Source: Agelas oroides
Taxonomy: Eukaryota; Porifera; Demospongiae; Agelasida; Agelasidae
Assembly: GCA_949130485.1 (NCBI GenBank)
Contig: OX422187.1
Coordinates: 372,001-436,000 of the forward strand
DNA: 64,000 bases
Direction of reading: 5' to 3'
The notes beneath the pieces are model-generated. The model searched no databases. It worked only from the letters and a program-made list of their open reading frames with translations, and was not told where the DNA came from. Within the stretch, counting starts at the first letter, position 1; each line of letters starts with the position of its first letter. Below are positions 31,826 to 61,385 of this stretch, piece by piece. The position numbers and the translations under genes were made by a program.

Positions 31826-32527
31826 GGACTATACTTCTTACTCTACCATACTCTACACAGCACTCACCAGATGAACTACATGTACAACAGTGTTGTAGTA
31901 ATGGTAGTTGTTAATTGTAATTATGCTGTAATGGATTACTTTTTGCATTTAATTGTAAGTAATCTTTGTTAACTCCACAACAGTAATCTTTGTTAACTCC
32001 ACAACAGTAATAATAGCCTGGTACCCGGCGTGCGCCGGGGACGAGGCTACAGTAATAAGTAATCGTTACCTGCTGTTAATTTTTGCTGTAAGCAATTCCA
32101 AATTAGAGGATTACCAGAAATTACGTGACAAAGGTTATGCATCGTGTGTCATGTTGTTCTGAGACCACTGAAGCAGCTGGTGGTCTGAAAACAAGGCTTC
32201 CTCGAAATTTAGAGACTCTATTATATGTGAAGGTGAATTCCACCTTGCTTTGACTGGATTATCTACTGTCTGTTAATTCCAATTGCACCATCTAGTAAGT
32301 AATAATTACAGTTGAAATTGTGTATAGTAATTTACCAAGCAGCTTGTTTTGTTTGCAATTACTTCTAAGTAAGTAATGATTGCAAACCATCTTCCTTGTA
32401 ATTAACTGTTGTAATTCATTGTTTTGAACGAGTTTTACCTTAAGGTTAATGATTACATTAGGCAAGTAATTGACAACAACACTGATGTACAATAGTCATA
32501 GTTTCAGTGTAGACGTATACCCTTATG
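31826..32527. other. AT-rich spacer with repeated 'agtaatNNttac' words
   Basis: No gene recognised. 32050-32500 is rich in GTAAGTAAT/ATTACTT words that could form local hairpins. A 23-bp direct duplication (AGTAATCTTTGTTAACTCC...) lies at 31959-32009. The 36-bp element at 32014 is annotated separately. Confidence 0.5.
32014..32049. mobile_element. 36-bp palindromic element with 9-bp target duplication
   Basis: TAGCCTGGTACCCGGCG opposite CGCCGGGGACGAGGCTA, essentially all stem, flanked by perfect direct repeats CAGTAATAA (32005-32013 and 32050-32058). Its tips match the TAGYCTCG...CGAGRCTA family found throughout the window. Confidence 0.85.
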
Positions 32528-33036
32528 CAGGGCCGTAGCCACCGGTCCGGTTAGTCCGGTTTCAACCGGACCACTTTTTCCCTCACCCATGGCTTGCTTG
32601 GCGTCGCCAAATAGGGCCAATGCTCGGCAAACGCCCATGGCACGCACACAGCGCTAGCGTGGTGACATGTTGCAACATAATACGAGATGGCTGCGAACAG
32701 TGCGAAAGACCGAGTCTTCCAACAATTTTCCGTTCTTCCAACCGAACGATCTGCAAAGGGTGTGGCTTGTGAGATTAGTGAACGATCGGAAAGCCGAAAC
32801 CATGCAGTGCTATATGGCGCAACGGGCAGAAAGGGTAGATGTTCATACATGTAAGACTCTGTCGTCTGGCCTCCGAGAAGCATCGTTTTGGCCCAAAAAT
32901 GGTGTCAGAAGCAACCTCATAGACTCTAAATTCCAAAAATTTTCTGGGGGGGCATGCCCCCAGACCCCCCTAGCTGTTGCGTGCTTACGCACGCACCACT
33001 AACTTGACCACTCCAAATTTGATGGCTACGGCCCTG
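32528..33036. mobile_element. hAT-like non-autonomous element, CAGGGCCGTAGCCA termini
   Basis: Left CAGGGCCGTAGCCA and right TGGCTACGGCCCTG are perfect inverses. Direct repeats TTATG flank it (32523-32527 and 33037-33041). Inside, GGGGGGGCATGCCCCC and CGTGCTTACGCACG are palindromes. CAGGGCCGT-type tips are common in animal hAT elements, though hAT normally makes 8-bp duplications, so superfamily is tentative. Confidence 0.75.
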
Positions 33037-33573
33037 TTATGTATACCAAGTACAAACCAATCAGAAAAATACACATATACATGAACAATCAAAGGACCAC
33101 AATCTCCCTTAAAAGAAAGGCCTAGATGTTATGCAAAGTCACCCACTGTGCACCCACTCAGTTATGTGCTGTGGCTTGGGTCAGCAAGGGTGCTAACTCT
33201 TGGGCTCTGGACTGTGGTTGAACTGATGAACCATTGGGTTTTGACCCATTTCCAGTTGCTTGTACAATAGCATGCTGTCAACCATATGTGATCAACCTAA
33301 TGTGAGCTGAATTTTTCAATCTGATTTGAGATAAAATTGATTCTGTTGTTCCAAATTGTAATATTCCCTTAAACAGGGTGAGGTGAATGCGCTATTCCAA
33401 TAGCAAGTATTGGCTACTTAAACATTCATAATGTGAACATACTTATATGACAACAGCGAAGGAAATAGATAATTATACAAAATAATTACATTTCAAGTTC
33501 AGCAATATGACAAGGTCGTACAGAAACATAAGTGTTAGACATTACATAATATCTGTGGTATACTTCATGTATT
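33037..33573. other. No gene recognised
   Basis: Includes a segment at about 33075-33145 shared with 16679-16745. The remainder is AT-rich with no coding signal; it may include the 3' end of the downstream minus-strand transposase gene. Confidence 0.4.
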
Positions 33574-35829
33574 TTAAGTGATGTTATATCTACCATAGCA
33601 TACTTGTCTGTAAGAGATTATAATACAGTAGGCAAAGTAATGGTGGTAGAAGCATGTAGTCTCACATAATCGAACTAGCAAAATTTTGTTGTCTTCAGAA
33701 TAAATAATGTTCTTAATTTCTCCAAAGACTGGATAGTCATCATGTGATGGTGCCTCCAAGCAAACAAGTGCACCAGGACGGAACTCTACTCCCAGCACTG
33801 AAATACTCAATGTGCTACATGAGGTAAAGGGTATATATACATCATTCACTGATGTCATAACAGTACTAAGAAAGAAGTTTTCAGGTGTATGTGGATAGTA
33901 GATGTATCCAGGTGTCGTATGTACCATTGTACTGCAGTTTCTGTAGAGCTTGGAAACTGTTCTTCAATTACTCTTCTCGCTGCTTGTGGAAATTCAGTGA
34001 GATCTGCTGTGAATCCTGTGATTAGAAAGATAATTATTATACTTGTTCCTTAATTTAAAGACTGAAAAAGCATCCTTTTCCTATTTCATCTCCTTTATAC
34101 AGGAAATTTGACATTTCCACACCAGGAGCAGATTTCAGCTGCAGGCACATGTAGTGTTGGTGCTTGATTGCCACTGTGCATGGCAGGTTCTTAAAATTTT
34201 TGCCACAACAAAGCTTTTGATTTGGGCATTTTTTGCTTCAAAGCACATGCACCACTGGTTTCGGAGAGGTCCAAACCTACGTGAATGGTGGGTATATGTA
34301 CATGTAAGAGCATTACAAGGGAATAACCTGTCGCTATGGCAATGACTTATCAAATCAATAAAGTTTCAAGATATAGTTCATTACATAGCAGAAAATGCAG
34401 GCAGTGAAATGATTACTTACAGTTTGATCTGCTGTGGAAGATGTATCAGATAGTGCAACTTGGGCACTATAGAGCCTGGATACAAGTTTGCATACTGTGT
34501 AAGGTAGGTCTCGATCAGTAGTGTCATCATATGAACAGTAGCCTCGGTCACTTCATAGCTAGTAGCGAGTGTTACTATTCTCAAAAGTTGGATGTAACAC
34601 TTCCACTGCTCATCTCTCTCTGGGACACACTGTCCAACCATCAGTGGTAGCAAACGGCCCAGCAACCACATCTGTGTGGCTGATATGATGCAATACTAAT
34701 TCAAAAAGGAATGTGCTATTTTTTGGGCATGAAAGGAGGTCGTGTAATTGTTGCCCTCCATCCCAATACAAAAGTCATCTGTAGTCTTGCTAGTAAATAT
34801 GAAAATATGAAAGTTTTTTTGTACAAGTAAAACCAATGTGGGGGCTCATACTCTTCAAATTTTACTGAACTTGATGACAAATTAACCTTAGGAATGCAAC
34901 TATTTAATACTCATCTGATTGTCCTAGTTGAGTTATCATCTACCAGACGATCACCATCAATGAGGCTAGGGATTGTCCTTGACTCCGAATAGCCAGATTG
35001 AAAGTTCTTAATTTGGTCATTGAGAAAGCTTAGGGTGAAGTACCCTTTCTTTTTAATACAGTAAGTTAGAAGCCTTCTACAATGGAGCACTAGCACACCC
35101 TCGAAGATGATGCGCATAATGTCATGTGGCAGACACTGGCATACATCAAAGTGAGGTGCCTTGTCAAGGATGCTGGGCCGATTCACTCCATATTTCCTCG
35201 AAAAGTGATCAGACAGCCCTGTGCCCAACAACTGGCAGTGCCGTTTATGGGTTCTGAGACTTCTTAACCGGACTGCAGAGGAATTGAACTATATTGGTTG
35301 GAGAAAAAAAAAAAAAGCACTGCAATATTATCACACCACAAAAACATCAAAGAAATTTTACTAGAACTCTAAAACAAAAAGGTGAAGTCAAAGCATGTTC
35401 TGTTTCAAGGTAACTAATTTGAAGGGTATTGATTGAATAAGTTTAGGCATGTACTCTTGACCATAAAGGTTGTTGCAAATCCCTATGGATAAGTGTGGTG
35501 TAACAGGATATCGAAACATAATCTTCAAATGTGAAACCAGGAGTTTAAAACTGAAGATTTCCTGAACCATTTAAAAGCACGTTTAACAATTGAAGTGAGT
35601 GACCTAACAGTGTACAGCTACATTACAAGAAGTCAGGTGCTAACGATTCTACCTAGATAACTTTAAATTGTATTTCCATGTGATGATTCTAAGTAATGTT
35701 AGTTCGTATTTTTTTTTACTAGTAGAGATAAGAAATACCTTTGTTTGTAGTTCTCCAGGCAAAACCATGCATGACCTGCACTTCCTGTAGGCAGACACAC
35801 TCTCTTTGTCGCCTCCAGCTAGACTACCG
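33574..35829 (-). pseudogene. CACTA (En/Spm)-type transposase-derived gene, Tnp2/DUF4218-like, decayed
   Basis: Recognisable exons on minus: 35829-35740 (GGDKESVSAYRKCRSCMVLP, a CxxC segment), 35272 to about 34911 (GLSDHFSRKYGVNRPSILDK, CQCLPHDIMRIIFEGVL), 34679-34421 (QMWLLGRLLPLMVGQCVPER, LYPGSIVPKLHYLIHLPQQI), an exon opening at about 34278 (FGPLRNQWCMCFEAKNAQIK), and 33927-33574 (GVEFRPGALVCLEAPSHDDY, FGEIKNIIY). This order matches Tnp2/DUF4218 proteins of animal CACTA-like elements. Exon 34679-34421 splices in phase to the next. Defects: at the AAAAATTTT run near 34195 the frame must change to continue as FKNLPCTVAIKHQHY, and no good donor ends the 34911 exon. No element termini were identified. 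Confidence 0.7.
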
Positions 35830-37140
35830 ATACAGTGCAGCTTCACTGAGCTACAAGTTACTTGGACACTTCAGTGAAGTGTGCACTTTGCTACTGGCTA
35901 GTAGGTTAGCTTAATGACTTCTTTATGGCAGGACAAGCTGATTTGTCCACCTGCACTCAAGTCATTGTTTTCTTTCCACTTGGGATGTGGTTAGCCTCAA
36001 AAAATTTAAAAAAATGAAAAGCCTGGTGGCCTGGTCATTTTTGTAAAGTGACTTGTAGGACTAGAAACAGGCAATAAATTTTGTGTGGCCTGTTTACAAT
36101 GGTTTGCTGTGTCCAAAATTTGGAGTGCAACCATCCATAGATTAGTCGTACAGTGGAAAAGTGCATATTCAGTCTGATTGAGACTTTGACCAAGCCCTGC
36201 AGCAACCAGCTCCAGCATTGGAAGCTGCAGAAGCAGGCATGTTGATCCTCGTGTTGATCACTAAGTCATAACCTTCACTGGACTAAATATGTACAACTGT
36301 AAATGTGCTCCATTATGTACAACAGCGCACATTGTGAAAAGATTAGACCAGACATGATTCGCGGTGTTTCTGAACGTAACCAGGGGCATGTACTAAACAC
36401 TAGTCTCGTGCCCAGCCAAATTTTAAGCACGCGGAGGGGAAAAATAGTCTGGTCAACTGCCTATTCGTTCCAAGCGCCACGTTCGTGGCGCTTCAATCAG
36501 ATTGCTTCACGCGAATGACGTCACGTACTGCAATAGATGACGATCAAAGATAGCTAGGCAGTTGAAGTGCTATGCAGGAGACTAAGCCTTGTAGAACCAG
36601 AGAATGACAGGCAAAGGGATGCCAGGACTTCTGTGAACGGGCGGTGTGTTTCTGAGCTTGAAAACTGGCAGTGTGAAGTTCCTGAGGCTTTTAAATGTCG
36701 GTAAGATTGTCTCAGGGCTATCTGAGGTTGACCAGTAGTGGCAAGGTATAAGGACAAAATGCGTATAAAGTTGACGGCGGTAACCGGTTATCATGGTTCC
36801 CAGGGTTCTCACATATAAAAGGTTCATGTTAAACTTCAGATTGATAATGCTACACAAATACCTGGCTCACGTCACCCTTGGAGGCGATGTAGACACTGGG
36901 CAATCCAGTACGAATGCAATAAAATTACTTTGGGGGCGGGGCGATCCCACGAACGGGAACGCGATCGCTTCGAACGCTATCCCGAGCGTTTTCAGTTTCT
37001 CCCCTGGCAATCTTCAAGTGTGGAAATGCTATGACAACTTGTAATCATTTCCTTCTACCTTCTAGCAGTTGAGGTTAGTGTTTGCAACTTAGATGTAGGT
37101 ACTGATACCGTGAATTCGGCGAAACAAATACACACATTAC
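35830..37140. other. No gene recognised; one MULE-like tip
   Basis: At about 36401 a TAGTCTCGTGCCCAGCC tip of the 9-bp-duplication family appears without an obvious partner. 36880-37000 is G+C-richer with GATCGC-type words. Open frames here lack motifs. Confidence 0.45.
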
Positions 37141-37380
37141 AGCGAAACCATTGAGAACCATTGAGAACCACTGAGAACCACTGGTAACCATTGAGAACCA
37201 CTGGTAACCACTGAGAACCACTGGTAACCACTGAGAACCAATGGTAACCACTGAGAACCATTGAGAACCATTGAGAACCACTGAGAACCACTGAGAACCA
37301 CTGAGAACCACTGGTAACCACTGATAACCATTGAGAACCACTGGTAACCACTGAGAACCACTGGTACGCAGTGCGAACCA
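37141..37380. repeat. 10-bp minisatellite, unit CTGAGAACCA / CTGGTAACCA, 24 copies
   Basis: Perfectly phased 10-bp units alternate among TTGAGAACCA, CTGAGAACCA and CTGGTAACCA. Minus-strand frames opened by it (SGSQWLSVV-type) are artefacts of the period. Confidence 0.97.
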
Positions 37381-38904
37381 CCGATAGCCATTGGGAAACG
37401 ATCATCTTCGCTCTCTAGAGGAGGTAAGCTCATAGATCATGTAGCTGCACACTACAGTTATGCTACATGAGAACCATGAGAACCGTGATGACTGGTTACC
37501 GCTCAAAACAAAAACAAATTTTTCATCTTAAACCTTGCCATGTCTAGTTGAACGAGGCTAGGTTCCAGTCAAATCGCCAGCGCTAGCGTACGTAACGCCT
37601 TACGTTGCAGAACGGTAGCCTCGTTCCCAGGCCTTCCCCGGCTCCAGTTTTTGATCGCTTGCAGTATGCAAAAAGGGTCGCGTAAGGTGCCGGGTGAAAG
37701 CCGCATCCGGTGGGTGGAGCTAAGGGCGTGACCTATATCGTGTGACATATGAAGGATACACGTGCACCTGTTTGACATCTTGACATGACTGTTGTACTTT
37801 GACCTCGACTGCTGACTTGCTTGCTTGGCAAGGGCCAAGGCACACAGCCAACTGTTCTACAGCACTTCCTAAGGTATCCAGTAGAGATTTATATGTGTAC
37901 CAATGCATCAGACCTCATAAAAACTCAGCAGGAGTCCAGCGGGTTGCATAAATCATGATCATGGCCTACTCTAGTACTAGGATTAACTAGTTCACTTAGT
38001 ACTTCCAATTTCCAGAGATGATAACAAAACGTGCATGTATTCCTGGTCAAGGGAGTAAATAGTCTCATGTCAAGCCATCTAGGCTCCCCAATGAAGAATA
38101 GCAGGTGCTTTGACTCAAATTCCTTGTCAAGAACGTATATGTCCAGCAAATTAAGAATGGAGCACTGATACAGTTCACTCTTTGTCACTATTGATTATAC
38201 ACTCCTTGATTTTGTTGGCCATCCGATATTCCAAGCATCCTATTGACAAGAATATTGAATTAAACCACCAGACTCAGAGATTGTGGATAAGCGTAATCTG
38301 GGGACTGACATCACTACTTGTAGCCACTTTGATTGATGCTCAAGCCTTGTGCTATCAGTGACAGCTATAAATCATACCCATTTCTCTGTACTACTCCTAA
38401 GAAACGTGTAGTCACATGGTTGTTGGATGCAAACAGTTCGTTGATTTTTAGTTTCTCATCAAGTGTTTTATCTGCACCCAATGCGGGTGGGCAGCTTATT
38501 CTTAGCCGACAGATATTTCTCACCGAAGAACTCAACAAAAATGATGTCAGGAGGATCAATGCTCATTATACGCTGTTGTAGAAGAGCTCTTTCGATGCTG
38601 TGGAGTAGAGAGACACGTTTGTTGGCATTGTGTTCATTGCTACGCTTATCCAGTACGTCGTTAGTATCTTATATGAAAAAAGAAATAACGGTGATATATT
38701 CTATCTCAGAAAACCATGCAGGTGGCTGATGAGAAACTAATAATCTTACATGGCCATAAAAAGCAGTCAGGCAGGTCAGGTTAGGCCTAAGCAATTTTAT
38801 GCAGACCAAACATGCACATGAGCACTTTGATATAAACTAGTAAGAATGACAATTTCTCCATTATTTGACACAAAACTATTTACTTCCTTGATCAGGAATA
38901 CATG

Positions 38905-39210
38905 TTGTCTCACAAGCCACACCCTTCGCAAAGAGAGGAAGGGTCTGGTCACGATACAAGCATTGAGTTGTCAGCGAGGAACGCAATTATCGAATGCATG
39001 CAGCAGTTAAATAATAAGATGCTGACATCTGCTTAGCTAGGAGGAGGCTACTGCTTAACATGCGACATAATTGTGCTCCATGACAATGGATGCGACCTAC
39101 AAAGAGTGCAGATCTGATTGGTCACATCAAGTTTCTGCCATGGCAACAACTCTATGGTTGCAGTGTGACCAGACCCTTCCTCTCTGTGAAGGGTGTGGCT
39201 TGCGAGACTA
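38905..39210. mobile_element. 306-bp member of the TAGYCTC family nested in the larger element
   Basis: Ends GTCTCACAAGCCACACCCTT and AAGGGTGTGGCTTGCGAGAC are inverse. Flanks GAATACATG and GAAGACATG are direct repeats with one mismatch. Related ends occur at 41690-41735 and 60889-61083. Confidence 0.75.
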
Positions 39211-39428
39211 GAAGACATGCACGTTTTTATTTTTATTGTCTCTGAGAAGGTGGAAGTACTTAGTGAATTAGTTAATCCTATCAATATCACCAACCAATAA
39301 AACACAGGCCTGTCGCCCCAGGATGGAGAGCCTCAAGAACTTCAGTAGCTATGTGTACATGTACCAGAGTAGGTCATTATTACTTAATGCAATTCAAATA
39401 GACTCCTGCTGAGTTTTATGTCAACTTA

Positions 39429-39722
39429 TGAATTCTGATGCATTGGTATACTTGTATTAAAATCTCTACTGAATACCTTAGCCTGGCTTAAGAAGAGCTG
39501 CAGAACAGTTGGCTGTGGGCCTTGCCAAGCAAGGAGCAGTCGATGTCAAAGTACAACAGTCATGCAAAGCCAGTACGAAGTGTTATTCTGATGCATTGGT
39601 ACACTTGTAAATCTCTACTGAATACCTTAGCCCGGCTTAAGAAGAGCTGCAGAACAGTTAGCTGTAGGCCTTGCCAAGCAAGCAGCAGTCGATGTCAAAG
39701 TACAACAGTCATGCAAAGCCAG
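39429..39722. repeat. Two tandem copies of a roughly 150-bp segment, also present inverted near 37790-37925
   Basis: ATTCTGATGCATTGGTA through CATGCAAAGCCAGTA is repeated at 39429 and about 39582. The inverse (ACTGTTGTACTTTGACC... ACCAATGCATC) at 37790-37910 makes it part of the inverted structure of the 37616-40462 element. Confidence 0.8.
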
Positions 39723-39759
39723 TAGTCTCGCGTAGCCAGAGTCTGGCTACGCGAGACTA
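39723..39759. mobile_element. 37-bp palindromic element with perfect 9-bp target duplication
   Basis: TAGTCTCGCGTAGCCAGA opposite TCTGGCTACGCGAGACTA, a nearly perfect hairpin. Flanks are CAAAGCCAG at 39714-39722 and 39760-39768. It is inserted into the second copy of the tandem segment. Confidence 0.9.
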
Positions 39760-40609
39760 CAAAGCCAGCGCAATGACACGATGTAACAGCTTAGTCAGCT
39801 ACAGCCCTTCGCTTCACATATCATCATGACGTAATCTAGGTCGCGCCCTTAGCTCCACCCACCGGATGCGGCTTTCACCCGGCACCTTACGCGACCCCAT
39901 GCAAAAACGGACCGGAGGGAGAAGGCCTGGTGAATCTTACCACGTGATCCGCGGCACAGGCGTCACATGTCGTCACGCTTATATGTACAGCCATGCTAGG
40001 GAGAAGACCGATCTTGCGTTCTGTACTAGCTACGAAGACGAGACAAGCGCTGACAGAGAACAACATCAAGCGTAAAAAACATATCTCAGCTAGAAGGAAT
40101 AACTCCGAAGGGTTGCCGAACGACATGTGTGAAATATCTGCAGTGACAAAATTTAGCTAACGTAGCGAAAAAGCAGCCGCTTTTGGATTTGCAACGCTTG
40201 CAGGGGAACCATCCTTCAGCGGTTCTGCTTCAGACTCGGGTATGTTCTAGAGGTAGAACTTGTCTTTCGGCTGGAACTTGTCTTGTTTCTCTAGCTTCTC
40301 TGTAGCTGGAGATATAAATGTGAATATGTCTTCGTGTCTAGAACCTATGACGTCATGTGTGCCGCGGATCACGTGGTAAGATTCACTAGGCCTTCTCCCT
40401 CCGTTTTCGCATACTGCAAGCGATCAAAAACTGGAGCCGGGGAAGGCCTGGGAACGAGGCTAGCAGAACGGTGCCTACGTGCGCAATAATAGCACGGATT
40501 GAGCGACCTAAATAAGCGCTATTTTCAACTCGAATTTTCTTGTGGGAAAGCAGTTTGTGCTAGACGGTAGCTGAAAGTATTGTCTTTCGAACTAATCATG
40601 TTATAAACT

Positions 40610-47340: not shown

Positions 47341-47925
47341 CAGGAAGGGAGAAAGGAAAGGAAGGGAAGAAAATAGAGGGAAGCGAGGGGAGGGGGGAGG
47401 GGAGCAAGGGAAGGGAGGAAAGAAGGAAGGAGGGAGGAGCGAGAGGAGAAACTAGTGTTATTGTTAAACGAAGCTAATATACCTCCCACACTCCCTCCTT
47501 CCTCCATACCTTGAACATTTCCCTAACATGCTCTGCATGAGGGGTAGTGGTGAAGCTGGATGGCTTGTTGCTCATCCCCTCCATGACTGCGAGGACAGAG
47601 GGAAAGAGGGAGAGGAGGGGAGGAGAGGGATGAGGGAGGTGAATTGATAGGTTAGTTGATATAATGAGAAAAGTGATGTACAGTTAAATTAATCATCCAA
47701 TAACAACCCCCCCCCCCCCCACCCCCCCCCCCCCCCCACACACACACACACACACAATACTATTACTGCGCATGTTTATCAAAAATTGCCTCAGGGTCTA
47801 ACAAGAATTGCCAGGGGGAGCATTCCAATGCCTCACTGATTGATTCATTGATTGATTAATTTAATTTCAAACAGGAAATTCCCTTCAGTCAATGGCTGGT
47901 CCACTAGGGAGTCCTGTATATACAA
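47341..47925. other. Low-complexity stretch
   Basis: GGGA-rich purine tracts at 47343-47450 and 47585-47640, a poly-C then (CA)n run at 47707-47757, then unique sequence with no gene recognised. Confidence 0.7.
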
Positions 47926-49160
47926 AGTCACAAAAAAGTTTTCTGAATGAAAACAAGCGCATGTAGGGATGGAACCCTCAAAAACCAACCAAACTAGATG
48001 GGAATGACACCACAATACTTATTCACACCATCCCTACATCTTGTGCCATTTTGCCAACTATGCTTTATGTTTGTTAGTTGTGTGCATAGAGAAGTTGTGG
48101 AAGGCAGTGTGGTATAGGTAGTGCTGGGTGTGGAGTCCATGTTGATGTGCATGGGGAGTGGGTTACGTTGTGGGTGGCGGCAATGTAGTTGCTATACTGA
48201 GCATGGCAGATATGGTCTGTCTTGAATGTAGAAGCTGTGGAGTGCATGAGCTGGGTTAGCCTCGTCCCCGGCGCGTGCGAAAAACGGAGAAGCGCCTGGT
48301 ACACACTGTTTGCGCATGCGTTTAATCTCCCCAAGATGTGGGGACTCCGGGCTATTTTCTGATTCTTCCGTGTCATGTGACGTCAGTGTTCGGACTCGAT
48401 ATAGTAAACTTGTCAGGATAGTGTAATGGTGCGTAATGAAAGTTCGGATCTTCCAGCAAGCGATTTCTCAAGTCCTTCAGCGACTTGTGACCCCAAGTGT
48501 ATGGTTCTCTAAACTTTCAACTCTCCGCTTTCACTTCGCACACATGAGATTCGGTAAGCCGTCGTCATCGTTCAACGTTATATCCAACAGAGCGCTTATC
48601 CTTGATGCTAGTCTTTCCTGGCTAGTTTTTTTTTACCAAACAATGCTACTCTATGGTGGCTATAAGCCACAGGGGATCCGCAAAGGCGGCACAACAATGC
48701 CACTATCGCTAACTGGGCCACGACGGGATCTTTACTACTTAAATTTCGTCAGAGCACACGCCCCTAAACAGTGTGAACGTCATAAACGTGAGCAACGCCA
48801 TTTTTAATTAACCGGAAGCGATCAGTGTGTACCAGGCGCTCTTCCTCCGCGCCGGGTACCAGGCTAGAGCTGGGTCTGTATAGAGTAAGTTATGAATTTT
48901 ATTGCTGCTGAACATGGATTGTCCTTTATGTAGAAGGCTGTGGAGTGAGCAGTGCTGAGCACAGTGTTCAATTAGTGGGTGGGAATAGGCTAAGTGCATG
49001 TAGAGAGTTTTGTGGTGTGCATAGTTGGCAAAATGGCACAAGATGTAGGGATGGTGTGAATAAGTATTGTGGTGTCGTTCCCATCTAGTTTGGTTGGTTT
49101 TTGAGGGTTCCATCCCTACATGCGCTTGTTTTCATTCAGAAAACTTTTTTGTGACTTGTT
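47926..49160. mobile_element. Foldback element D, copy 1, carrying a nested 600-bp insertion
   Basis: About 140-bp inverted ends: 47931-48065 (CACAAAAAAGTTTTCTGAAT, CATGTAGGGATGGAACCCTC, CTTGTGCCATTTTGCCAACT) and the inverse at 49022-49160. Removing the 48257-48856 insertion and one 9-bp duplication leaves about 625 bp, the same size as copy 2 (60565-61385) after removal of its own insertion. No coding capacity. A solo right half lies at about 52960-53095. Confidence 0.8.
48257..48856. mobile_element. 600-bp TAGYCTCG-family element carrying a zinc-finger-like coding segment
   Basis: Perfect 9-bp duplication GAGCTGGGT (48248-48256, 48857-48865). Tips are TAGCCTCGTCCCCGGCGCG and GCGCCGGGTACCAGGCTA. 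On the minus strand about 48620-48260 encodes a segment related to 55225-55560: [22 protein letters not shown], which resembles the CxxC...LE core of ZAD-like zinc-finger modules of animal transposon/THAP-type proteins. Mutator-like elements that carry gene pieces are known (Pack-MULEs); whether this was captured or is the element's own relic is open. Confidence 0.75.
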
Positions 49161-49889
49161 CCTGCTATTTTTTTTTTGTATTGTTTTTTAGGAATGGTAA
49201 GAAAGAAGAGACGTTGGAGGGTAGGACGAGCATGCTGTGTACAGTATGATAGTATAGAACTTTTTTGTTCACAAACAACTAAGAATCGTCATAAATTCAA
49301 ACGCTTCTAAGTGAAATTGTAAATCCAAACATCAAACTCCTTTATCTGCAGGGTTTAGAAGCCCAAGCAAAGCCACATAAAGCACATGGGTTTAATGAGG
49401 CTTTGCACACGAGCTTGTAATTCCCGCGCTCACTTCATGTGGACTGCTAATGGGTTCACCAAGAAACTCTCCATAGACTGTCACCACAGAGTATTGAGTC
49501 ATAAGACCCCATTACAGGAACAGTTTGATGGTGAGTAGCTATAGTCTAAATCGGTTTGCATAGTGATCAATGGAGCTGAACAACCGCCACTTTCTGTGGC
49601 CGCCTCCTCTAGTGCGGAAGTTTATGAATGAAGCCATGCACTGTTGACTCGGTGCTACTAGCTGCACTAGAGGAGTTCGAATACCAAGCTATATCAATAG
49701 GCTGCTACTTGCTGCATTGGAGGAATATGAAGACTCAGGCCCAACACAAAAGGAAGATGTTACCATCAACTCAAAGTAAACATTGTATGTGTACAGTTGT
49801 AAATGACTACTGCGCTTTGCAGGTAGGTTGTCAGAAGGAAACGGACAGCGTGTATCTGTGGTTGATTAAAGTCCTTTGAAGAAACCATA
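49161..49889 (+). pseudogene. Fragments of a dispersed gene-like repeat (copy 1)
   Basis: About 49390-49529 is an open stretch (MRLCTRACNSRAHFMWTANG, SIDCHHRVLSHKTPLQEQFD) ending at a donor GATG|GTGAGT. About 49628-49770 encodes MKPCTVDSVLLAALEEFEYQ and HWRNMKTQAQHKRKM. Both pieces recur at 53220-53362 and, inverted, at 59895-60335. I do not recognise the protein. It behaves as the coding part of a repeated element, with stops between the pieces. Confidence 0.5.
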
Positions 49890-50436: not shown

Positions 50437-50534
50437 TAGCCTCGTTCCCAGGCCCTAGCCCAGCTTCCCGTCGCTTGCAGTACGGCAAGCGCGCTAGCGA
50501 CGGGAAGCTGGGCTAGGGCCTGGGAACGAGGCTA
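50437..50534. mobile_element. 98-bp palindromic element with perfect 9-bp target duplication
   Basis: About 39-base arms (TAGCCTCGTTCCCAGGCCCT... opposite AGGGCCTGGGAACGAGGCTA) around a short loop. Flanked by GTAAACACG at 50428-50436 and 50535-50543. Confidence 0.92.
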
Positions 50535-52612: not shown

Positions 52613-53690
52613 TAAACTGCGTGCAGCTGCAAGGCTTCCCCATTGACTCCCATACATTAGCGTGAGTTAGACGTATGATAAATTTCTGTATCATCGAAAG
52701 ATACAGCTGTTTGCCAGTTGAATTACCTTCAACTCCATGATTTTAGTCTCGTGCCCAGAAAATAGTCTGGGAACGAGACTATTCATGAATGTAGAGAGGA
52801 TAATCACCGTGCATAAGAAGGCAAGGATGCTTTCTTGCAGCTACCAACTAGTTTCCGTAAGTCAGTACGCTACAAGGTGCTGTCATTTGCGTGCTTGACT
52901 GTAAACCAAGCAGTAGTCCAGTCCAGTGATTAGGCTAAGTGCATGTAGAGAGATTTTTGGCGTGCATAGTTGGCAAAATGGCACAAGATGTAGGAATGGT
53001 GTGAAATTGTTGTGGTGTCATTCCCATTTAGTTTGGTTGGTTTTTGAGGGTTTCATCCCTACATGCGCTTGCTTTCATTCAGAAAACTTTTAAGGACTAA
53101 GAATCGTCATAAATTCAAATGCTTTGAAGTGAAATTGAAAATGCAAACATCACACTTCTTATCTGGGGGGTTTAGAACTCCAAGCAAAGCCTCATAAAAA
53201 CCAAGTGCAAAGCACATGAGTTTAATGAGGCTTCGCATGCAAGCTTACAAATCCCGTGCTCACTTCATGTGGACTACTAATGGGTTCACCAAAAAACTCT
53301 CCATAGACTATCACCACAGAGCATGGAGTCATAAGACCCCATTACAGGAACAGTTTGACAGTGCAGCATAAACTATAGGGTGAAGTTTGCCAGCAAAACA
53401 AACGGTATGGGGCTCTGGCTAAACTGAAACAGCTTTTCCGCCTCTCCAAGTATCATAACAATAAAATCACATAAACAGTGGCTACTACAGTGGTCAGACA
53501 CGCGCTGAGCAGCGCAAATTTGCAATTATTGTTGGTGCAGCTTCCGTTTCGTTTCGTTTCTCGATTTACTAGCACCCGGCCACTGCCTGAATACATTAGC
53601 ATGGAATAATGGAAGAGGATCTCGGTTCAACTGTAAAGGCACTAGCATTAATTAATAGCCACCAGCCCCCACAATCCTCTATATGTACTG
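52613..53690. other. Repeat fragments
   Basis: TAGTCTCGTGCCCAG/CTGGGAACGAGACTA at 52745-52785 is another short hairpin of the TAGYCTCG family. 52925-53100 is a solo right half of foldback element D. 53101-53365 is a copy of the gene-like repeat (MRLRMQAYKSRAHFMWTTNG, TPLQEQFD). The rest shows no gene. Confidence 0.6.
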
Positions 53691-53691: not shown

Positions 53692-53772
53692 ATGGGGGGT
53701 GGTGGTCCAGTTGTTGTAGCACACTGGCAGCCCAAACCAGGCATCCCTGGGTTTGATTCCCAGAGAATACCA
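53692..53772 (+). repeat. tRNA-derived SINE head
   Basis: TGGTCCAGTTGTTGTAGC fits the Pol III A box and GGGTTTGATTCCC the B box at tRNA spacing. The sequence ends AATACCA followed by a T-run. Anticodon and acceptor stems are poor, so a SINE or tRNA relic. Confidence 0.6.
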
Positions 53773-53912
53773 ACTTTTTCACTTTCTTCTAATTTACCTT
53801 GTAACGTCTAAACCTTATTACATGTATTTCCAGCATGAAACAAAATGTTCTAAGTATTGTTATTGGTAAAAAGGGATGTAGAGTGGGTTTAACCACATAA
53901 TCCAATGAATAG

Positions 53913-54788: not shown

Positions 54789-54916
54789 AACTGCTTTGCA
54801 ACCAAATGTTATACATTTAGTGCTTATAAGACCCCTTCCTTCACCAGTGTTGAAAGCGAACTGCGTTGGGGTTGGCTTTAAACCAAGACTAATCTATATC
54901 AGCCTGCACTACTTAC

Positions 54917-57070
54917 ACTGGATTCCAAAGTTGTCAGAATCGGTGAAGTACTCCTTGGTCAGCCCCGACCACTGCTTTGTGATCTTGCCCACAGGTTGGG
55001 TACCATCAGGGGACAGAATCTAGAATAAAGAGCGGATTGGCACAATATCACTGTGCAAGTAGTCAAAGGAGAATCACTCCTGTACATATAGTTTCAAACA
55101 TCGAGTGAAACAAGTTTATACAATATAGATGGAGGAAAAGATTTGCATGCCTTCTTGTAGCATTGTTTAGTAAAAAAACTAGCCAGGAAAGACTAGCATC
55201 AAGGATAAGCGTTCTGTTGGTATAATGTTGAACGATGATGACGGCTTACCGAATCTCATGTGTGGGAAGTGCAAGCGGAGAGCTGAAAGTTTAGAGAACC
55301 ATACTTGGGGTCGCAAGTCGCTGAAGGACTTGAGAAATCGCTTGCTGAAAATCCAAACTTTCATTACGCGCCATTATATTATCCTGACAAGTTTACTATA
55401 TCGAGTCCGAACTCTGACGTCACATGACATGGAAGAATCAGAAAATAGCCCGGAGTCCCCACATCTTGGGGAGATTAAACGCATGCGCAAACAGTGTGTA
55501 CCAGGCGCTTCTCCGTTTTTGGTGCGCGCCGGGACGAGGCTAGGTGTGAGGTGGAGTGGCTAGCAATGAATAGTCAGTGTAGTGACCGGTAGTGATTTAT
55601 GCTCATGAATAGCATAACCTGACACATTATCACACCCTCCCACACTGTGAATAACACTTCCCACACACTGGTTTGAGCAGAAAAATGAATTTTGTATCTA
55701 GTACATGTAGAAGCACATGTGGCAGTCTCGTGTAGAAATCAAAGGTTATTCCATCGCGTATTTCGATCGCATCGCTGGCTTCGAAGTGCCATATCGCTGA
55801 ACTTCCGTTAAGGGCGGGGCTCATATGCGCTTCGTAGATTCATTAGATATTCATGCATCTACGAAGCATGTATGAGCCCCGCCCTTAACAGAAGTTCTGC
55901 GATATGGCACTTCAAACACAGCAATGCGATTGAAAATACGCGACAGAATAACCTTCGATTTCTACATGGGACTGCCACACATGCCACTGGAATTAGCTTT
56001 AGAACAAATTGCAGCAGATGAATTTGAATGTCTATTCTCATATTTCCTATACTAACTATTCACGTTACCCTAGTCAACAGTCTTGTGTTGTCTCATAGCT
56101 AACATGGTTCTCCAAAACCATGTGGGACAGTTCGGTGTAGACATTGCAAATTATTCCATATTTCAAACACATTGCCACGTTTGAAGCGTTGAATTTCTGC
56201 TGCTAATGGTGGGATCACCATGTTTGGAGCACTGTAATGCTGGGTGGGGTTCATATGCACTTTGTAGATGTATTAGAAGTTTATGTGTCTACAAAGTTCC
56301 TGTGAACCGCACCCTTACCAGAAGGTCAGCATTCAAGGTCTCAGTGATGGGTTAGGGTTCAATAGAGGTGAGTAAGTGAGGGGGAGTAAGGAGTGATGAA
56401 TCTGCATGCTGAGTATCAACACTACATGTCATGCATAACATTACTAAAACTGATCTGTGCTGGGTTGGTTTTGGGTCTGGGCCTGAAACTAGTATTTATT
56501 CATATTGTGCACTAGCTGGTAACAAAACCAATGCTAAAAAACTTGTGATGATGTTTTCCCAGTATCATTATCAGTTGCAATGGTGATAGTTATATAGTAT
56601 GCAGACAGAAGGAAAGAAGGCTCACAATAACTGGATTGTAAACTTTCAAACTTTGCCCTAGTACTATATTGTCCCCAATCAACTTCACTACCACACGTAT
56701 TGATGTGTGTATATGTGCAGACAAAAGCGCATAAGAATGGCGGCTTGAGTAAGAGCGTGTAACTCCAATAGAAGCCAGTAGTCCTGTCAAAATTATTGAA
56801 CCGTACTAAAAATAGAACACCCGGTCACGTGCTTAGCAACAATGGCTTATGGCTACTGCAGCATGCATAGTATGTGTTAGTATTTTATCACTGGCGGTAA
56901 ATTCCAACCAGTTTCAAATTTCATGGAGTTACACACTCTACACATTCTTATGCGATCTTGGTGCAGGGTATACCCAGTATGCATGGACTTACTTTCAGCA
57001 GCAAAGTAGACTTGCTGTCCGAGGGTGTTGTGGATACGATACTTGTTCTCTGTCTCCCAACCAGTCACCA
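54917..57070 (-). CDS. Phospholipid scramblase (PLSCR) family, two recognised exons
   Basis: Exon 57070-56993 encodes [20 protein letters not shown] followed by VYFAAE. Exon 55019-54917 encodes [20 protein letters not shown] followed by [14 protein letters not shown]. In known scramblases these are the start of the beta-barrel core (TGFETxNKYxIxNxxGQxVYFAAE) and the strand pair before the C-terminal membrane helix (VGKIxKxWxGxxxExFTDADNFGIQFP). Both have good splice sites (ACAG-type acceptors, GTAAGT donors). PLSCR proteins are calcium-responsive membrane proteins linked to bilayer lipid scrambling. The cysteine-rich exon between them, the N-terminal exon and the C-terminal membrane exon were not found; the intervening 2 kb is full of inserted repeats (55157-55545, 55716-55985, 56105-56340). 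The gene may have long introns beyond what I could trace, or be broken. Confidence 0.75.
55157..55545. repeat. Truncated inverted copy of the 48257-48856 element
   Basis: The inverse of about 48258-48645. The right tip CGCCGGGACGAGGCTA ends at 55542; the other end stops near 55157 without a tip. Plus-strand frame 55225 onward reads [40 protein letters not shown], longer and better preserved than in the complete element. Confidence 0.8.
55716..55985. mobile_element. 270-bp palindromic MITE
   Basis: GTGGCAGTCTCGTGTAGAAA opposite TTTCTACATGGGACTGCCAC. Inner arms AAGGGCGGGGCTCATATGCG/TGTATGAGCCCCGCCCTTA face each other near the centre. Confidence 0.85.
56105..56340. mobile_element. Diverged copy of the 55716-55985 MITE
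   Basis: Same order of arms in degraded form: GTGGGACAGTTCGGTGTAGA, GCTGGGTGGGGTTCATATGC, then the inverse ...GTGAACCGCACCCTTACCAG. Confidence 0.65.
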
Positions 57071-57225
57071 CTGCAGAAAGTAGAGAGAACAACGACATCA
57101 TAGTCACACCACTCCAATCAGATTACATGCTTCTGGTCAGCTATAGTGGTGGCCAGGGAGGAGTGCCACAGCTGTTATTTTTACCAAGGGTTCTTTCTAG
57201 ATTGCTTCTGATTGTGACTACCGAG

Positions 57226-57511
57226 TGGTCTCGTGCCCAGACCCTCTCGTACATGTGAGAAAGAGGGTCTGGTGTTCTGAGCGACTTTTTTTTTTTTGGC
57301 GCATGAGGCAAAATTGCTCTCCAATCTCAGAGCTTGATTCAGCATACTTTGAACTGTAAATTGGAGGTAGAATAAACTTCTCCCGCAGCTAGTTGTCCCA
57401 AGAGACTTCACTGCTGTCAGAAAGCTCAAGTCCCGGATGTCAAAAGCAATTATCATCCTTTATACATAGGACCCACCCCATGTGACAAGATCAGGGCAGG
57501 GCACGAGACTA
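57226..57511. mobile_element. TAGYCTCG-family element without visible target duplication
   Basis: Left TGGTCTCGTGCCCAGACCCT and right CAGGGCACGAGACTA. A hairpin (ACCCTCTCGTACATGTGAGAA, AGAGGGT) sits at the left end. Flanks do not match. Confidence 0.6.
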
Positions 57512-57601
57512 CCCCTTACAGTTATTCTAACTAAGGGGTCCGCAATCAAATACCTGAAATAACGTGCTAGACTTCATCATCGAGCGCTCTATTGCCAGGC
57601 A

Positions 57602-57866
57602 AGACCCCATACGTTTACAAGATCGTGAGTACTCCGCTTGACCGGTAAGAAACTCGCTCTCAGGTTTATTTTGCCCGTACTTAAATTATGCATGCTACAC
57701 ACATTAGCATGGAGCGCCCATGCCATGCCATTGTGACCCCATACGTTTACAAGATCGTGAGTACTCCGCTTGACCAGTAAGAACTCGCTCTCAGGTTTAT
57801 TTTGCCCGTACTTAAATTATGCATGCTACACACATTAGCATGGAGCGCCCATGCCATGCCATTGTG
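57602..57866. repeat. 133-bp direct duplication
   Basis: Two near-identical copies of GACCCCATACGTTTACAAGA through CATGCCATGCCATTGTG, joined head to tail. Confidence 0.95.
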
Positions 57867-58036
57867 AGTTGCCAAAATTAAAACTGCAAAAATTGCATGT
57901 GGCAAGTATTTTAGACTTTGATAAGACAAGGTTCTAAACAAGGAAAACATGACTTGATTTGACTTAGCTGTAAAGCTAAGTCTTCCAAAAATTGTTTTTC
58001 AATCACCGTTGCAATGGAGGAAGTGCCACAGATCGA

Positions 58037-58682
58037 AGCAAGCAGCTGGCTTTATATACCCAGGCTTGTTCCTAACACTTGTGGGTTTACTTCCGTTTTA
58101 ATTAAAGTATTATTCATTGAGCTATAAATATTGTTAGCTGGTGAATTAAGCTTTGCCAATATGTAGACCTTGTTTGCATACTTTTTGGCATGCCATCCCT
58201 ACATCTTTTTACATTTTTAATGATTTTTTAAGTCTTTTCATATATGTGGCAGTCCTGGGTATTATTCCGTTGCATATTTTGATTGCGTCACCATGCTCAA
58301 AGAGCTGTAGCACGGAACTTCAATTAAGGGCGGAGTTCATTCATTTTGTGTAGACACACAAAAACACGTCTACGCAGCATGTATGAGCCACTGCCCTTAA
58401 TGGAACTTCTGCAGTACAGCACTACGAACGCAGTAATGCGGTCGAAATACACAACTGAATAATGTTTGATTTCTGCCACATGTAGGGAAATATGCAGAAC
58501 ACGATTGTAAAACATAGATGTACAATACTGCAGTGGCCAGGGAACCAGGCTACCATGGTCCACTTTCAGTCTGAACACATTAACCAGCTAACAATATTCA
58601 CAGCACAATGAATAATACTTTAATTAAAACGGAAGTAAACCCACAAGTGTTAGGAACAAGCCTGGGTAAAGCCAGCTGCTTT
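58037..58682. repeat. Inverted repeat with a nested MITE
   Basis: Outer arms about 58040-58146 and 58571-58682 (CAGGCTTGTTCCTAACACTT, CCGTTTTAATTAAAGTATTA and inverses). The interior 58245-58495 is a third copy of the 55716-55985 MITE family (ATGTGGCAGTCCTGGGTATT ... TTCTGCCACAT). Confidence 0.85.
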
Positions 58683-59335
58683 CTAGATTACTACTGCTAG
58701 TACTTCACTCCCAATCCCCCATAAGGGAAATTTTTGTATAGTCATGGCGTACGGTAGTACGCCATATGTAGGGATGACCCCGAAAAAAAATGGCCGCCAC
58801 ATTAAAAGTGCACAAATAACACGCTCGAAATGTCTTCGTTAGATTAGTCAAAGGCCTGTATGAGCCATATCAGGCATTATCGAGTGTTTTCATGAGCAAA
58901 AAGACTGTTAAGTTTGCTGGAAAGTATCGCTAAGCACCAGACCGGCAAGTCGCCAAAACGGACAAATCGTCTATCTTCTGACTTTCTTCTTCTGCCTCTC
59001 ACCGCGATAGCACGATAACGGCTGGAGCTTTTACAACGATTCAAACGCAAAACAACAGGATAAATCACTAGGTATTGCACCTGCCACTTATCGGTCTAAA
59101 AGAAAGAACTCAAACTTATCAGCGATTCTCAGGTAATCTCACACTTACGCTAGCTGCTACACGCCATTTTGCTCGAATTAAATATTACTCATAATTACGT
59201 CACCAGGGTTCAACTGAGCACGTGGTTCAGTACTTCGTAGAGAAGGTGAGAATTGAGCGTTGCAGTTTGCAAATCTGATTTCGTGGCTCAGTTGACGTGG
59301 TTGTGCTGCACTTTACGTCGAACGCAATACGCATA

Positions 59336-59791
59336 ATGTCCGCAAGAAACGAGCGCAGTACAAACAGAACTACCTGCGAAACAAAGGGGAAAAAAAGGCA
59401 AGCGTCCCATAATAATTACTGGAAGGACCCGGAGAAACACAGGGCATCTTCCCAGTCGTCCTCCCATGCCTGTTATTGGAAGGACCCTGAGACGAAAAGG
59501 GCATCCTCCCATACCCGTTATTGGGAGGACCCTGAGACCAAAAGGGCATCTTCCAGGGCATCCTCCCATACCCGTTATTGGGAGGACCCTGAGAAAGGAA
59601 GGGCAGCTTCCCGCATATCCTCCCATACCCGCTATTGGGAGGACCCTGAGAAAGGAAGGGCAGCTTCCTGCGTATCCTCCCATAGTAGATATTGGAGGAA
59701 CCCTGACAAAAAAAGGGCAGCAGCTCGTATGACTAATTTGAAGGCTGCAAAAGCCAAGCTCAAGTGGTATAGACGGTACTATGCCAGCTAG
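59336..59791 (+). CDS. YWxDPExKRAxSxA repeat protein, transposon-associated
   Basis: Start chosen at MSARNERSTNRT; an in-frame ATG also lies at 59297. About 150 residues, strongly basic. After a short basic leader come six copies of a motif such as HTRYWEDPETKRASS (NNYWKDPEKHRASS, ACYWKDPETKRASS, TRYWEDPEKGRAASR, SRYWRNPDKKRAAAR), then a Lys/Arg-rich tail (KAAKAKLKWYRRYYAS). Proteins with YxxDPExKRAxxRA repeats occur upstream of Helitron-type and other transposon genes in sponges and choanoflagellates; a nucleic-acid-binding role is inferred from charge. The frame is intact although it lies within the inverted duplication, and the other arm lacks it. Confidence 0.6.
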   Translation: MSARNERSTNRTTCETKGKKRQASHNNYWKDPEKHRASSQSSSHACYWKDPETKRASSHTRYWEDPETKRASSRASSHTRYWEDPEKGRAASRISSHTRYWEDPEKGRAASCVSSHSRYWRNPDKKRAAARMTNLKAAKAKLKWYRRYYAS

Positions 59792-59879
59792 TGTTTTAAC
59801 CATCAAGTACTTCATATGACTTAGAACACTAGCCACTGATATTCAATTTCAAGTTTTATTGTCAACTTTCACATTTCAA

Positions 59880-60450
59880 ATTTGCTTGTTATAGTCATTT
59901 ACATGCATATAGTACACATACAATGTTTACTGCGAGTTGATGGTAGCACTTTGGCTGGTGTCTTCTTAACATCCTCCTTTTGTGTTGTGCCTGAGTCTTC
60001 ATATTCCTCCAACGAAGCAAGTGGCAGCCTATTGGTAGCTTGGTATACTCAAACTCTAGTAGCACCGAGTCAACAGTGCATGGCTTCATTCCAAACTTCT
60101 GCACTAGAGGTGGCCACAGAACTGGCGGTTGTTCAGCTCCACAGACCCCTATGCATTCGTTTCAAACCGATTTAGACTATAGCTACTCACCATCAAACAG
60201 TTCTGTAATGGGGTCTTACGACTCAATACTCTGGTGACAGTCTATGGAGAGTTTTTCGGTGAACCCATTAGTAGTCCACGTGAAATGAGCACAGGATTTA
60301 TAAGCTTGCATGCAAAGCCTTATTAAACTCATCTGCTTTTCACTTGGTTTTTATGAGGCTTTGCTTGGACTGTACTTCTAAACCCCCCTAAGTTTGATGT
60401 TTGGATTGACGATTTCACTTCAAAGCGTTTGAATTTATGACAATTCTTAG
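59880..60450 (-). pseudogene. Gene-like repeat, inverted copy
   Basis: Minus-strand pieces MQKFGMKPCTVDSVLLEFEY, PIGCHLLRWRNMKTQAQHKR (60104-59895) and the upstream SRAHFMWT-type block (about 60335-60185) mirror 49161-49889. The exon before the GATG|GTGAGT donor contains a frameshift here (CACCAGAGT in place of CACCACAGAGT). Confidence 0.5.
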
Positions 60451-60564
60451 CTCTTTCTACTATCATACTGTACACACCATGCATCTTCCCCTCGGCCTAC
60501 CCTCCCATGTCACTTCTCTCTTACCATTCCTAAAAAGCAATACAAAAAAAAAAAGAGCAGGAAC

Positions 60565-61385
60565 AAGTCACAAAAAGTTTTCCGAATGAAAACAAGTGCA
60601 TGTAGGGATGGAACCCTCAAAAACCAACCAAACTAGATGGGAATGACACCACAACAATTTCACACCATCCCTACATCTTGTGCCATTTTGCCAACTATGC
60701 ACACCAGTAAACTCTCTAGCCTATTCACACCCACTAAATGAATACTATCTATAGTTAGCGCTGCTCACTCCACAGCCTTTTACATAAAGACAATCCATAT
60801 CTGCCATGTTCAGCAGCAATAAAATTTCACAACATAACTTACTCCAACAGACCAAGCTCATGCACTCGACAGTTTCTGCATTCAAGACTAGTCTCACAAG
60901 CCAGACCCTTTCTGTTCCACAATGCAGATCGCTTTCAGTATCGGCACGCAGAGGAAGGCACTAAGAATCGTCATAAATGCTTTGAAGTGAAATTGTAAAT
61001 CCAAACATCAAACTTCTTCCCTCTGTGTGCCGCATACTGAAAGCGATCGGTGCTGCGCAGAAAGGGTCTGGCTTGCAAGACTAATTCAAGACAGACCATA
61101 CCTGCCATTCTCAGCATAGCAACTACATCACAGCCACCCACAACATAACTCACCCCCCATCCACAGCAATATGCACTCCACACCCAGCACTACCCATCCC
61201 ACTGCCTTCCACAACCCTCCTATGAACACAACTAACAAACACAAAGCATAGTTGGCAAAATGGCACAAGATGTAGGGATGGTGTGAAATTGTTGTGGTGT
61301 CATTCCCATCTAGTTTGGTTGGTTTTTGAGGGTTCCATCCCTACATGCACTTGTTTTCATTCAGAAAACTTTTTGTGACTTGTTA
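60565..61385. mobile_element. Foldback element D, copy 2, carrying a nested 195-bp insertion
   Basis: Inverted ends 60573-60707 and 61245-61383 match those of copy 1. The internal sequence is the inverse of copy 1. The two copies have different TAGYCTCG-family insertions at different sites, which dates those insertions after the duplication. Confidence 0.8.
60889..61083. mobile_element. 195-bp TAGYCTCG-family element, perfect 9-bp duplication
   Basis: Flanks ATTCAAGAC at 60880-60888 and 61084-61092. Tips TAGTCTCACAAGCCAGACCC and GGGTCTGGCTTGCAAGACTA. The interior includes about 60 bp (AAGAATCGTCATAAATGCTT...) that also belongs to the dispersed gene-like repeat (about 49282, 53099, 60430), so it has acquired foreign sequence. 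Confidence 0.88.

What the first reader, a model, noticed from the sequence alone, without database searches (positions are those of the whole stretch)
32014..61083. A family of palindromic elements as short as 36 bp, each with a 9-bp target duplication
Elements at 32014-32049 (36 bp), 39723-39759 (37 bp), 50437-50534 (98 bp), 60889-61083 (195 bp), 48257-48856 (600 bp) and 37616-40462 (2847 bp) share tips TAGYCTCG/TAGCCTGG and CGAGRCTA. They are flanked by perfect 9-bp direct repeats CAGTAATAA, CAAAGCCAG, GTAAACACG, ATTCAAGAC, GAGCTGGGT and GCAGAACGG. A seventh (38905-39210) has one mismatch. Direct duplications at six different sites show real transposition. The 36-37 bp members are little more than two tips back to back, which is exceptionally small for a DNA transposon. 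Long TIRs and 9-bp duplications point to a Mutator-like transposase, not seen here.
Basis: partly seen in the sequence, partly recalled or inferred. Interest (0 to 1): 0.88.

Follow-up and report, generated by a model that had tools for sequence, protein, structure and literature searches.

The report
Tiny palindromic transposon remnants in sponge
A sponge genome is littered with palindromic pieces of jumping DNA, some only 21 to 60 letters long and still flanked by the 9-letter scar of their own insertion; most of the tiny ones look like larger copies that lost their middles.

Summary
A scan assuming no tip finds the same seven outside tandem repeats. Two insertions have paralogous empty sites. 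In the 259-Mb genome exact tip pairs 5-30 bp apart occur 1382 times (reversed control 2). TSD-flanked copies go down to 21 bp. The same tips and 9-bp TSD occur on a contig from a Poecilosclerida sponge sample. It is a large foldback/MITE-type DNA transposon family, probably in a demosponge. The 2847-bp "element" is a 614-bp one with a 2225-bp insert.

Tiny members are probably centre-deletion remnants: in the lists seen most centres are unique, and recurrent ones (40-mer x12, 46-mer x6, 42-mer x3) are joins at palindromic 8-, 6- and 4-bp words that act as direct repeats between the arms. The window's own 37-mer recurs too and fits this less well, so mobility of palindromic stubs is not excluded.

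A Mutator-like source is plausible (9-bp TSD) but unproven: no transposase gene with these tips was found.

The parts
28956..29000 (.).
32014..32049 (.). 36-bp TAG element, TSD CAGTAATAA; its halves match the two ends of the 610-bp element type (TAGCCTGGTACCCGGCG and TAGCCTCGTCCCCGGCG)
   Evidence: ends compared by eye
37616..40462 (.). 614-bp TAG element, TSD GCAGAACGG, interrupted by a nested 2225-bp element; its arms are identical for the first 54 bp
37674..39898 (.). nested element of another family: 2225 bp, ~64-bp TIR, 8-bp TSD ATGCAAAA; absent from the copy at 63455
38905..39210 (.). decayed 306-bp TAG element, 8/9 TSD, left tip TTGTCTCA; inside the nested element
39723..39759 (.). 37-bp TAG element, palindromic but for its central base, TSD CAAAGCCAG; identical (2) or near-identical (3, with 1-2 changes) 37-mers at five unrelated sites with other perfect TSDs
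48257..48866 (.). 610-bp TAG element, TSD GAGCTGGGT; empty in the paralogous repeat around 60889 (GAGCTTGGT there)
50437..50534 (.). 98-bp TAG element with two identical 39-bp arms, TSD GTAAACACG
52744..52781 (.). 38-bp pair of exact tips without a recognisable TSD
55157..55542 (-). truncated copy of the 610-bp type (93.6% over 393 columns), one TAG end kept
60889..61083 (.). 195-bp TAG element, TSD ATTCAAGAC; empty in the paralogous repeat around 48257
63455..64000 (.). second copy of the 614-bp type, tip TAACCTCG, running off the window, without the nested 2225-bp insert
47925..49157 (.). host repeat with 139-bp inverted arms that received the 610-bp TAG element
60562..61384 (.). paralogous host repeat that received the 195-bp TAG element about 30 bp away from the other insertion point

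Best explanation
A high-copy family of non-autonomous, palindromic (foldback/MITE-type) DNA transposons, probably in a demosponge. They insert with a 9-bp target duplication and end in TAGYCTCG; an end is often itself an imperfect ~19-21 bp palindrome, TAGYCTCG-N3..5-CCAGRC(TA). SHOWN: the tips, the 9-bp TSD, paralogous empty sites for two insertions, the size range down to 21 bp, and one element with the same tips and a 9-bp TSD in a second sponge-associated sample. INFERRED: a transposase acting in trans, perhaps Mutator-class, inserts longer copies (~100-800 bp); because the arms are inverted repeats, their centres are then lost, at or after insertion, by deletion that often joins palindromic words, which are direct repeats between the two arms. 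This leaves TSD-flanked palindromic stubs of 21-60 bp.
For: Family and TSD: in 267 kb, anchors of earlier searches included, perfect TSD pairs of 8, 9 and 10 bp: 1, 30 and 3; 13 of 20 sampled 32-60 bp elements at 20 unrelated sites have TSDs with <=1 mismatch; null 0.085%. Empty sites. Copy number: 1382 exact tip pairs with a 5-30 bp gap against 2 in the reversed control. Second sponge-associated sample. Centre deletion: of the 50 places listed (of 226 in all), 44 have distinct centres (43 entered) and only the 40-mer recurs at unrelated sites; the six other repeated or near-repeated pairs share flanks. In the complete CCG-class list (46 places, 38 centres), among CCGTTA-type centres an overlap of 6 bp goes with 6 copies, 4 bp with 3, and all eight centres with overlap <=2 bp with 1 copy; these nine recurrent copies have unrelated flanks and 7 of 9 have perfect TSDs. 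The 8-bp case (CCACGTGG) has 12 copies, 11 with different perfect TSDs. Asymmetric forms seen at several places share flanks wherever flanks were read.
Against: The window's 37-mer recurs exactly at three unrelated sites (the window's included), and with 1-2 changes at three more with perfect TSDs, though by eye only ~3 bp (AGA) would join its arms: this does not follow the microhomology trend. No site was found where one duplicated host copy has a long and another a short form; the only in-place change seen is 24 to 21 bp in 1 of 40 host copies, and that search could not see inserts over 46 bp. All recurrent forms are also palindromic (the 37-mer but for its central base), so better mobility of palindromes could mimic the trend. 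A 38-mer (CCGCGG) with about 4 bp overlap by inspection is single-copy, and a predicted 32-mer (6-bp AGGCCT) has only 3 copies, none with a perfect TSD. Parent abundance was not controlled. No transposase with these tips was found.
Confidence: 0.67

Rival explanations
1. The palindromic 37-46 bp forms transpose as such: two 18-23 bp ends back to back are enough for the transposase, and the recurrent 40-, 46- and 37-mers are small active subfamilies.
For: Identical 40-mers at 12 unrelated sites, 11 with different perfect TSDs; the window's 37-mer at unrelated sites with perfect TSDs and little microhomology; 46-mer at 6 unrelated sites, 5 with perfect TSDs.
Against: No asymmetric small form was found at unrelated sites where flanks were read; for the C-type forms tested, copy number follows the length of a palindromic microhomology; two back-to-back ends of ~20 bp would be hard to synapse on such short DNA (general knowledge, not tested).
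Confidence: 0.25
2. The shortening happens during transposition: the transposase holds ~17-20 bp at each end while the middle of the excised palindrome is lost before insertion.
For: In the tip-only sample 20 of 21 elements are 36 bp or longer; TSDs of short forms are often perfect, so the shortening need not be late. (The 17-19 bp kept at each end is by construction of the patterns and is no evidence.)
Against: Forms with only 8-9 bp left at one end (21, 24, 29 bp) also carry perfect or one-mismatch TSDs, which points to deletion after insertion; no direct evidence for the idea.
Confidence: 0.2
3. The small palindromes are not transposon-derived but simple hairpins, protein-binding sites or part of a larger unrelated repeat.
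For: Several small forms do lie inside larger repeats (24-, 27-, 39-, 41-, 45- and 46-mers), and the clustered 46-mers and most of the 27-mers have no clear TSD.
Against: 9-bp target duplications at many unrelated sites, empty sites, shared tips with 100-800 bp members.
Confidence: 0.02

Closest known systems
Tm1, Mutator/Foldback elements of root-knot nematodes (PMC3169594; passages seen)
   Same: Foldback-type TIRs, mostly 9-bp TSDs, MITE-like members beside transposase-coding ones
   Different: Tm1 TIRs hold tandem 13-15 bp motifs and end in CGGTTAA/CCTACCC; the passages seen describe no members of 21-60 bp; here no coding member is known
MULE superfamily (PMC6446971; passages seen: TSD 8-11 bp)
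   Same: 9-bp TSD; two MULEs of this genome show 9-bp repeats (L288; L291)
   Different: Tips TAGYCTCG; no MULE gene found inside TAG tips as its own ends
MITEs (internal-deletion derivatives of DNA transposons)
   Same: Short, TIR-bounded, TSD-flanked, high copy
   Different: Usual MITEs are about 100-600 bp (recalled); here a continuum reaches 21 bp, and in the lists seen most small forms have private centres instead of being copies of one founder
Repetitive hairpin-forming elements (RHE) of sponge mitochondrial DNA (PMC2800124; abstract, outline and passages seen)
   Same: Sponges; short hairpin elements, e.g. 10-bp helix with 7-bp loop, or 17 bp
   Different: Mitochondrial; mechanism left open for sponges in the paper; no sequence comparison was made here

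Membership tests
DNA transposon with TSD | Fixed-length target duplication at unrelated sites | tested here: met
   9 bp; perfect pairs of 8, 9, 10 bp: 1, 30, 3; unrelated sites
DNA transposon with TSD | Empty sites without the element | tested here: met
   Two paralogous empty sites
MITE | Short, non-coding, TIR-bounded, high copy | tested here: met
   longest stop-to-stop frame in the window's members is 126 aa, in the 610-bp element; it was not searched against families
MITE | Derived from an autonomous element with the same ends | tested here: inconclusive
   None found among 38 MULE loci and one PF20700 locus; 30 of the MULE loci were seen only to 1.5 kb on each side
Foldback element | Nearly whole element made of long inverted arms | tested here: inconclusive
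   True of the 98-bp member (39-bp identical arms) and the small forms; the 610- and 614-bp members have arms over only part of their length
Mutator-like (MULE) | TSD of 8-11 bp | tested here: met
   9 bp
Mutator-like (MULE) | Encodes, or shares ends with an element encoding, a MULE transposase | tested here: not met
   0 of 38 MULE loci examined (of 119 matches; 30 with 1.5 kb flanks, 8 of 7 kb) have TAG tips as their own ends; L291 is nested inside a TAG element. The search was incomplete
hAT, P, Merlin and other superfamilies | Superfamily transposase between TAG tips | not tested
Mitochondrial RHE | Located in mtDNA, shared sequence | not tested
   Elements here lie on contigs of up to 32.7 Mb; no mtDNA comparison made

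The most novel reading that the evidence does not exclude
The palindromic 37-46 bp forms are themselves mobile: two ~18-23 bp ends back to back, each end a covarying mini-palindrome, would be the shortest cut-and-paste DNA transposon known (as far as I recall), able to move with no interior at all, perhaps as an extruded hairpin.
Probability: 0.25. Interest if true: 0.88.

Novelty: new variant of a known kind. Interest (0 to 1): 0.64.

Why it matters
It shows how small a TSD-marked transposon copy can become (21 bp) and offers a concrete cause: in a palindromic element every palindromic word is also a direct repeat between the arms, so centre deletion is predictable in sequence. More than a thousand such stubs in one genome would be missed by ordinary repeat annotation, which seldom looks below about 80-100 bp (recalled). 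The ladder of deletions makes palindrome-centre deletion in an animal germline testable, and the same elements could be tested as a source of the unexplained hairpin elements of sponge mitochondria.

Tried and rejected
Autonomous partner: the 5330-bp TAG element in L291 first looked like a coding member, but several other copies of that MULE end at positions about 1933 and 6883 of L291, so it is a MULE with its own tips nested in a TAG element of about 380 bp. The PF20700 copy in L371 has a different inverted repeat. Proof of mobility from identical 40-mers: weakened after finding that the 40-mer is the exact join at an 8-bp palindrome of longer forms. The multi-copy asymmetric 39-mer looked like a mobile mini; all 20 copies read (of 43) share flanks. 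Two exact-tip scans of viral contigs gave no TSD-flanked case; three longer TIR patterns gave nothing there. Of the 16 GTDB hits, eight were read at the match: L001 holds the element; L014 shows a hairpin-like match (see noticed); the other six showed none by eye; eight were not read. No paper on such an element was found in the listings (open-licence library only).
Full report
What was checked. The window (64 kb, 43% GC) is G000:C5:372001-436000 of a 259-Mb assembly in 141 contigs. It is probably a demosponge: its GRB2 gene (13336-13968) has, as best hit carrying a source's own name, Em0020g666a at 70% identity (that the Em prefix means Ephydatia muelleri is recalled; unnamed proteins score higher, the best an ENA one at 91%), and the same transposon family lies on L001, a contig binned with a symbiont of a Poecilosclerida sponge. 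That contig is 42% GC and reads like animal DNA (by eye).

The observation. With tips allowed one mismatch, seven pairs in the window have a perfect 9-bp direct repeat and none has a perfect 7-, 8- or 10-bp one. A scan for any 9-bp direct repeat bounding a 10-bp inverted repeat, no tip assumed and five repeat-rich stretches masked, found the same seven and otherwise only hits in one tandem array. Over 267 kb of loci in hand, perfect TSD pairs of 6 to 12 bp number 0, 0, 1, 30, 3, 0, 0 (15 of the 36 elements with <=1 TSD mismatch were anchors of earlier searches). With no tip assumed, 29 of 36 hits at 9 bp are TAG elements (13 of the 29 were anchors) against 1 in a direct-orientation control; at the other lengths hits do not stand clear of the control.

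Nesting and empty sites. The 2847-bp element is a 614-bp element interrupted by a 2225-bp element of another family with an 8-bp TSD; a second copy of the 614-bp type at 63455, cut off by the window end, lacks that insert. The 195-bp and 610-bp elements sit in two paralogous copies of a host repeat, about 30 bp apart, and each site is empty in the other copy.

Sizes. Twenty-one non-anchor elements (15 with perfect TSDs, 6 with one mismatch) in 267 kb measure 21, 36, 37, 45, 50, 50, 62, 71, 75, 92, 95, 98, 110, 195, 370, 384, 394, 610, 831, 2847 and 5330 bp; the last two contain other elements. Scaled up this suggests of the order of 10,000 to 20,000 copies; the sample is biased, because the window was chosen for this family and most other loci surround MULE genes. 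Two 21-bp insertions with perfect TSDs were seen: L270 (GCCTGAGAC) and L369 (AGACTGTGA, 1 of 10 single units tested; the others are not TSD-flanked as units). The 44 distinct TSDs tabulated show only weak base preferences, T being rare at the first position.

Ends. Of 138 distinct 32-mers starting with the exact tip, 63 have CCAGRC inside and 75 do not. In the 63, tip base 4 and that R covary: C-G 38, T-A 23, exceptions 2 (Fisher p = 6e-15, not corrected for shared descent). So many ends are imperfect palindromes, and the inner tip TAGYCTGG serves as an end in 4 of 50 perfect-TSD elements (a few of the 50 are duplicated hosts), as in the 36-bp element.

How the small forms arise. The pattern TAGYCTCG-N5..30-CGAGRCTA occurs 1382 times, reversed control 2. 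TSD tests on small forms: 24 rows, 13 perfect and 6 with one mismatch, many sharing flanks, 12 copies of the 40-mer, 11 perfect, 20 copies of one 39-mer, all in one host repeat, with a 9-bp repeat only if one extra base is allowed, 20 rows, 8 perfect and 4 with one, 9 small forms, 6 perfect (three duplicated pairs) and 1 with one, and 1 of 10 single units, 20 unrelated sites, 9 perfect and 4 with one, 20 rows, 13 perfect and 3 with one, 9 rows in three duplicated hosts, 0 perfect and 2 with one. The null is 54 perfect and 303 with <=1 mismatch of 355,518.

Identity at unrelated sites: the 40-mer at 12 sites, 11 with perfect and different TSDs; the window's 37-mer, with up to 2 mismatches, at five further unrelated sites with perfect TSDs, while 3 of the 11 copies fetched have none, 2 share flanks with each other and have one mismatch, and one shares the window's own flanks. 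I first read this as proof of mobility. But the asymmetric forms seen more than once share their flanks wherever flanks were read (27-, 39-, 41-, 43-, 45-, 46-, 49-, 53-, 55- and 59-mers), and the recurrent C-type forms are what joining at a palindromic word of the longer arms gives: CCACGTGG (8 bp) 12 copies, TAATTA (6 bp) 6 copies, TTAA (4 bp) 3 copies, while the eight other CCGTTA-type centres, with overlaps of 2 bp or less, are single. One search's list is complete for its pattern (46 places, 38 centres); one search's is not (50 of 226 places).

Against this: the 37-mer recurs with only about 3 bp (AGA, by eye) to join its arms; a 38-mer with a 4-bp overlap (by inspection) is single; a predicted 32-mer with a 6-bp word has 3 copies, TSDs with 1, 1 and 4 mismatches; and the recurrent forms are all palindromes, so a mobility advantage of palindromes is not excluded. 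A 24-bp form carried by a host repeat kept its length in 39 of 40 copies found and became 21 bp in one, but that pattern could not show inserts longer than 46 bp.

Transposase. MULE domains are common here (119 matches, 150 of 194 candidates scored). None of 30 loci with 1.5-kb flanks or 8 loci of 7 kb has TAG tips as its own ends. L291 holds a MULE gene with ALS2CR8, CXXC and OTU domains and a sub-threshold SWIM match, whose own ends lie inside a TAG element. Two MULEs show 9-bp repeats with other tips: L288 and L291, where TATGTAAAC lies one base outside the matched ends (read by eye). The PF20700 family (44 matches) was tested at one locus only and has another inverted repeat. Mutator class is therefore an inference from TSD length.

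Literature. Of the papers met, Tm1 of nematodes is the nearest described system (passages). MULE TSDs are 8-11 bp (passages). Sponge mitochondria hold hairpin elements whose mechanism is left open (abstract and passages). I found no report of TSD-flanked transposon copies of 21-60 bp in sponges in the listings.

Noticed in passing
17650-23880: Telomere-like TTAGGG arrays recur at spacings of 685 bp (and about 1705 bp), as if in a tandem array of ~685-bp units inside the chromosome
   Followed up: no
1-2029: Tandem array of a 15-bp unit AGAGTAGGCGAAATG, 135 copies
   Followed up: no
11198-15518, 24735-25437: Dispersed arrays of 11/23/34-bp units built from AGTAGAATCATC-type words, on both strands
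   Followed up: no
6373-8313: Two frames matching DUF6589, likely one interrupted mobile-element gene (inference)
   Followed up: no
9061-9897: Frame with Helicase_C and RecQ zinc-binding domains
   Followed up: no
60955-61018: The loop of the 195-bp TAG element is ~85% identical to parts of the host repeat (60390-60450, 49278-49342, 53092-53160), as if captured
   Followed up: partly
L350, L384, L272 and the 39-mer family (L311-L330): One extra base between TSD and tip on one side, seen several times
   Followed up: partly
L398: A 42-mer whose flanking 9-mers are reverse complements (GTTTAACAT / ATGTTAAAC) instead of direct repeats
   Followed up: no
L291:1658-6987: MULE with ALS2CR8, CXXC and OTU domains nested in a TAG element; several similar copies in the genome
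   Followed up: partly
L001:1-6175: GTDB contig LWTN01000165.1, filed under a Cycloclasticus symbiont, looks like sponge DNA: a contaminant in the bin (by eye)
   Followed up: partly
L014, around 3758-3775: In a Hormoscilla (cyanobacterial) contig the TIR pattern continues into a hairpin-like stretch (TAGCCTCGTTCCCAGGCCACGTCTGGGAACGGGCTG), resembling a damaged stub; chance or a bacterial repeat not excluded
   Followed up: no
30647-30899, 28346-28599, 59389-59721: Minisatellite-like tandem repeats with open frames
   Followed up: no
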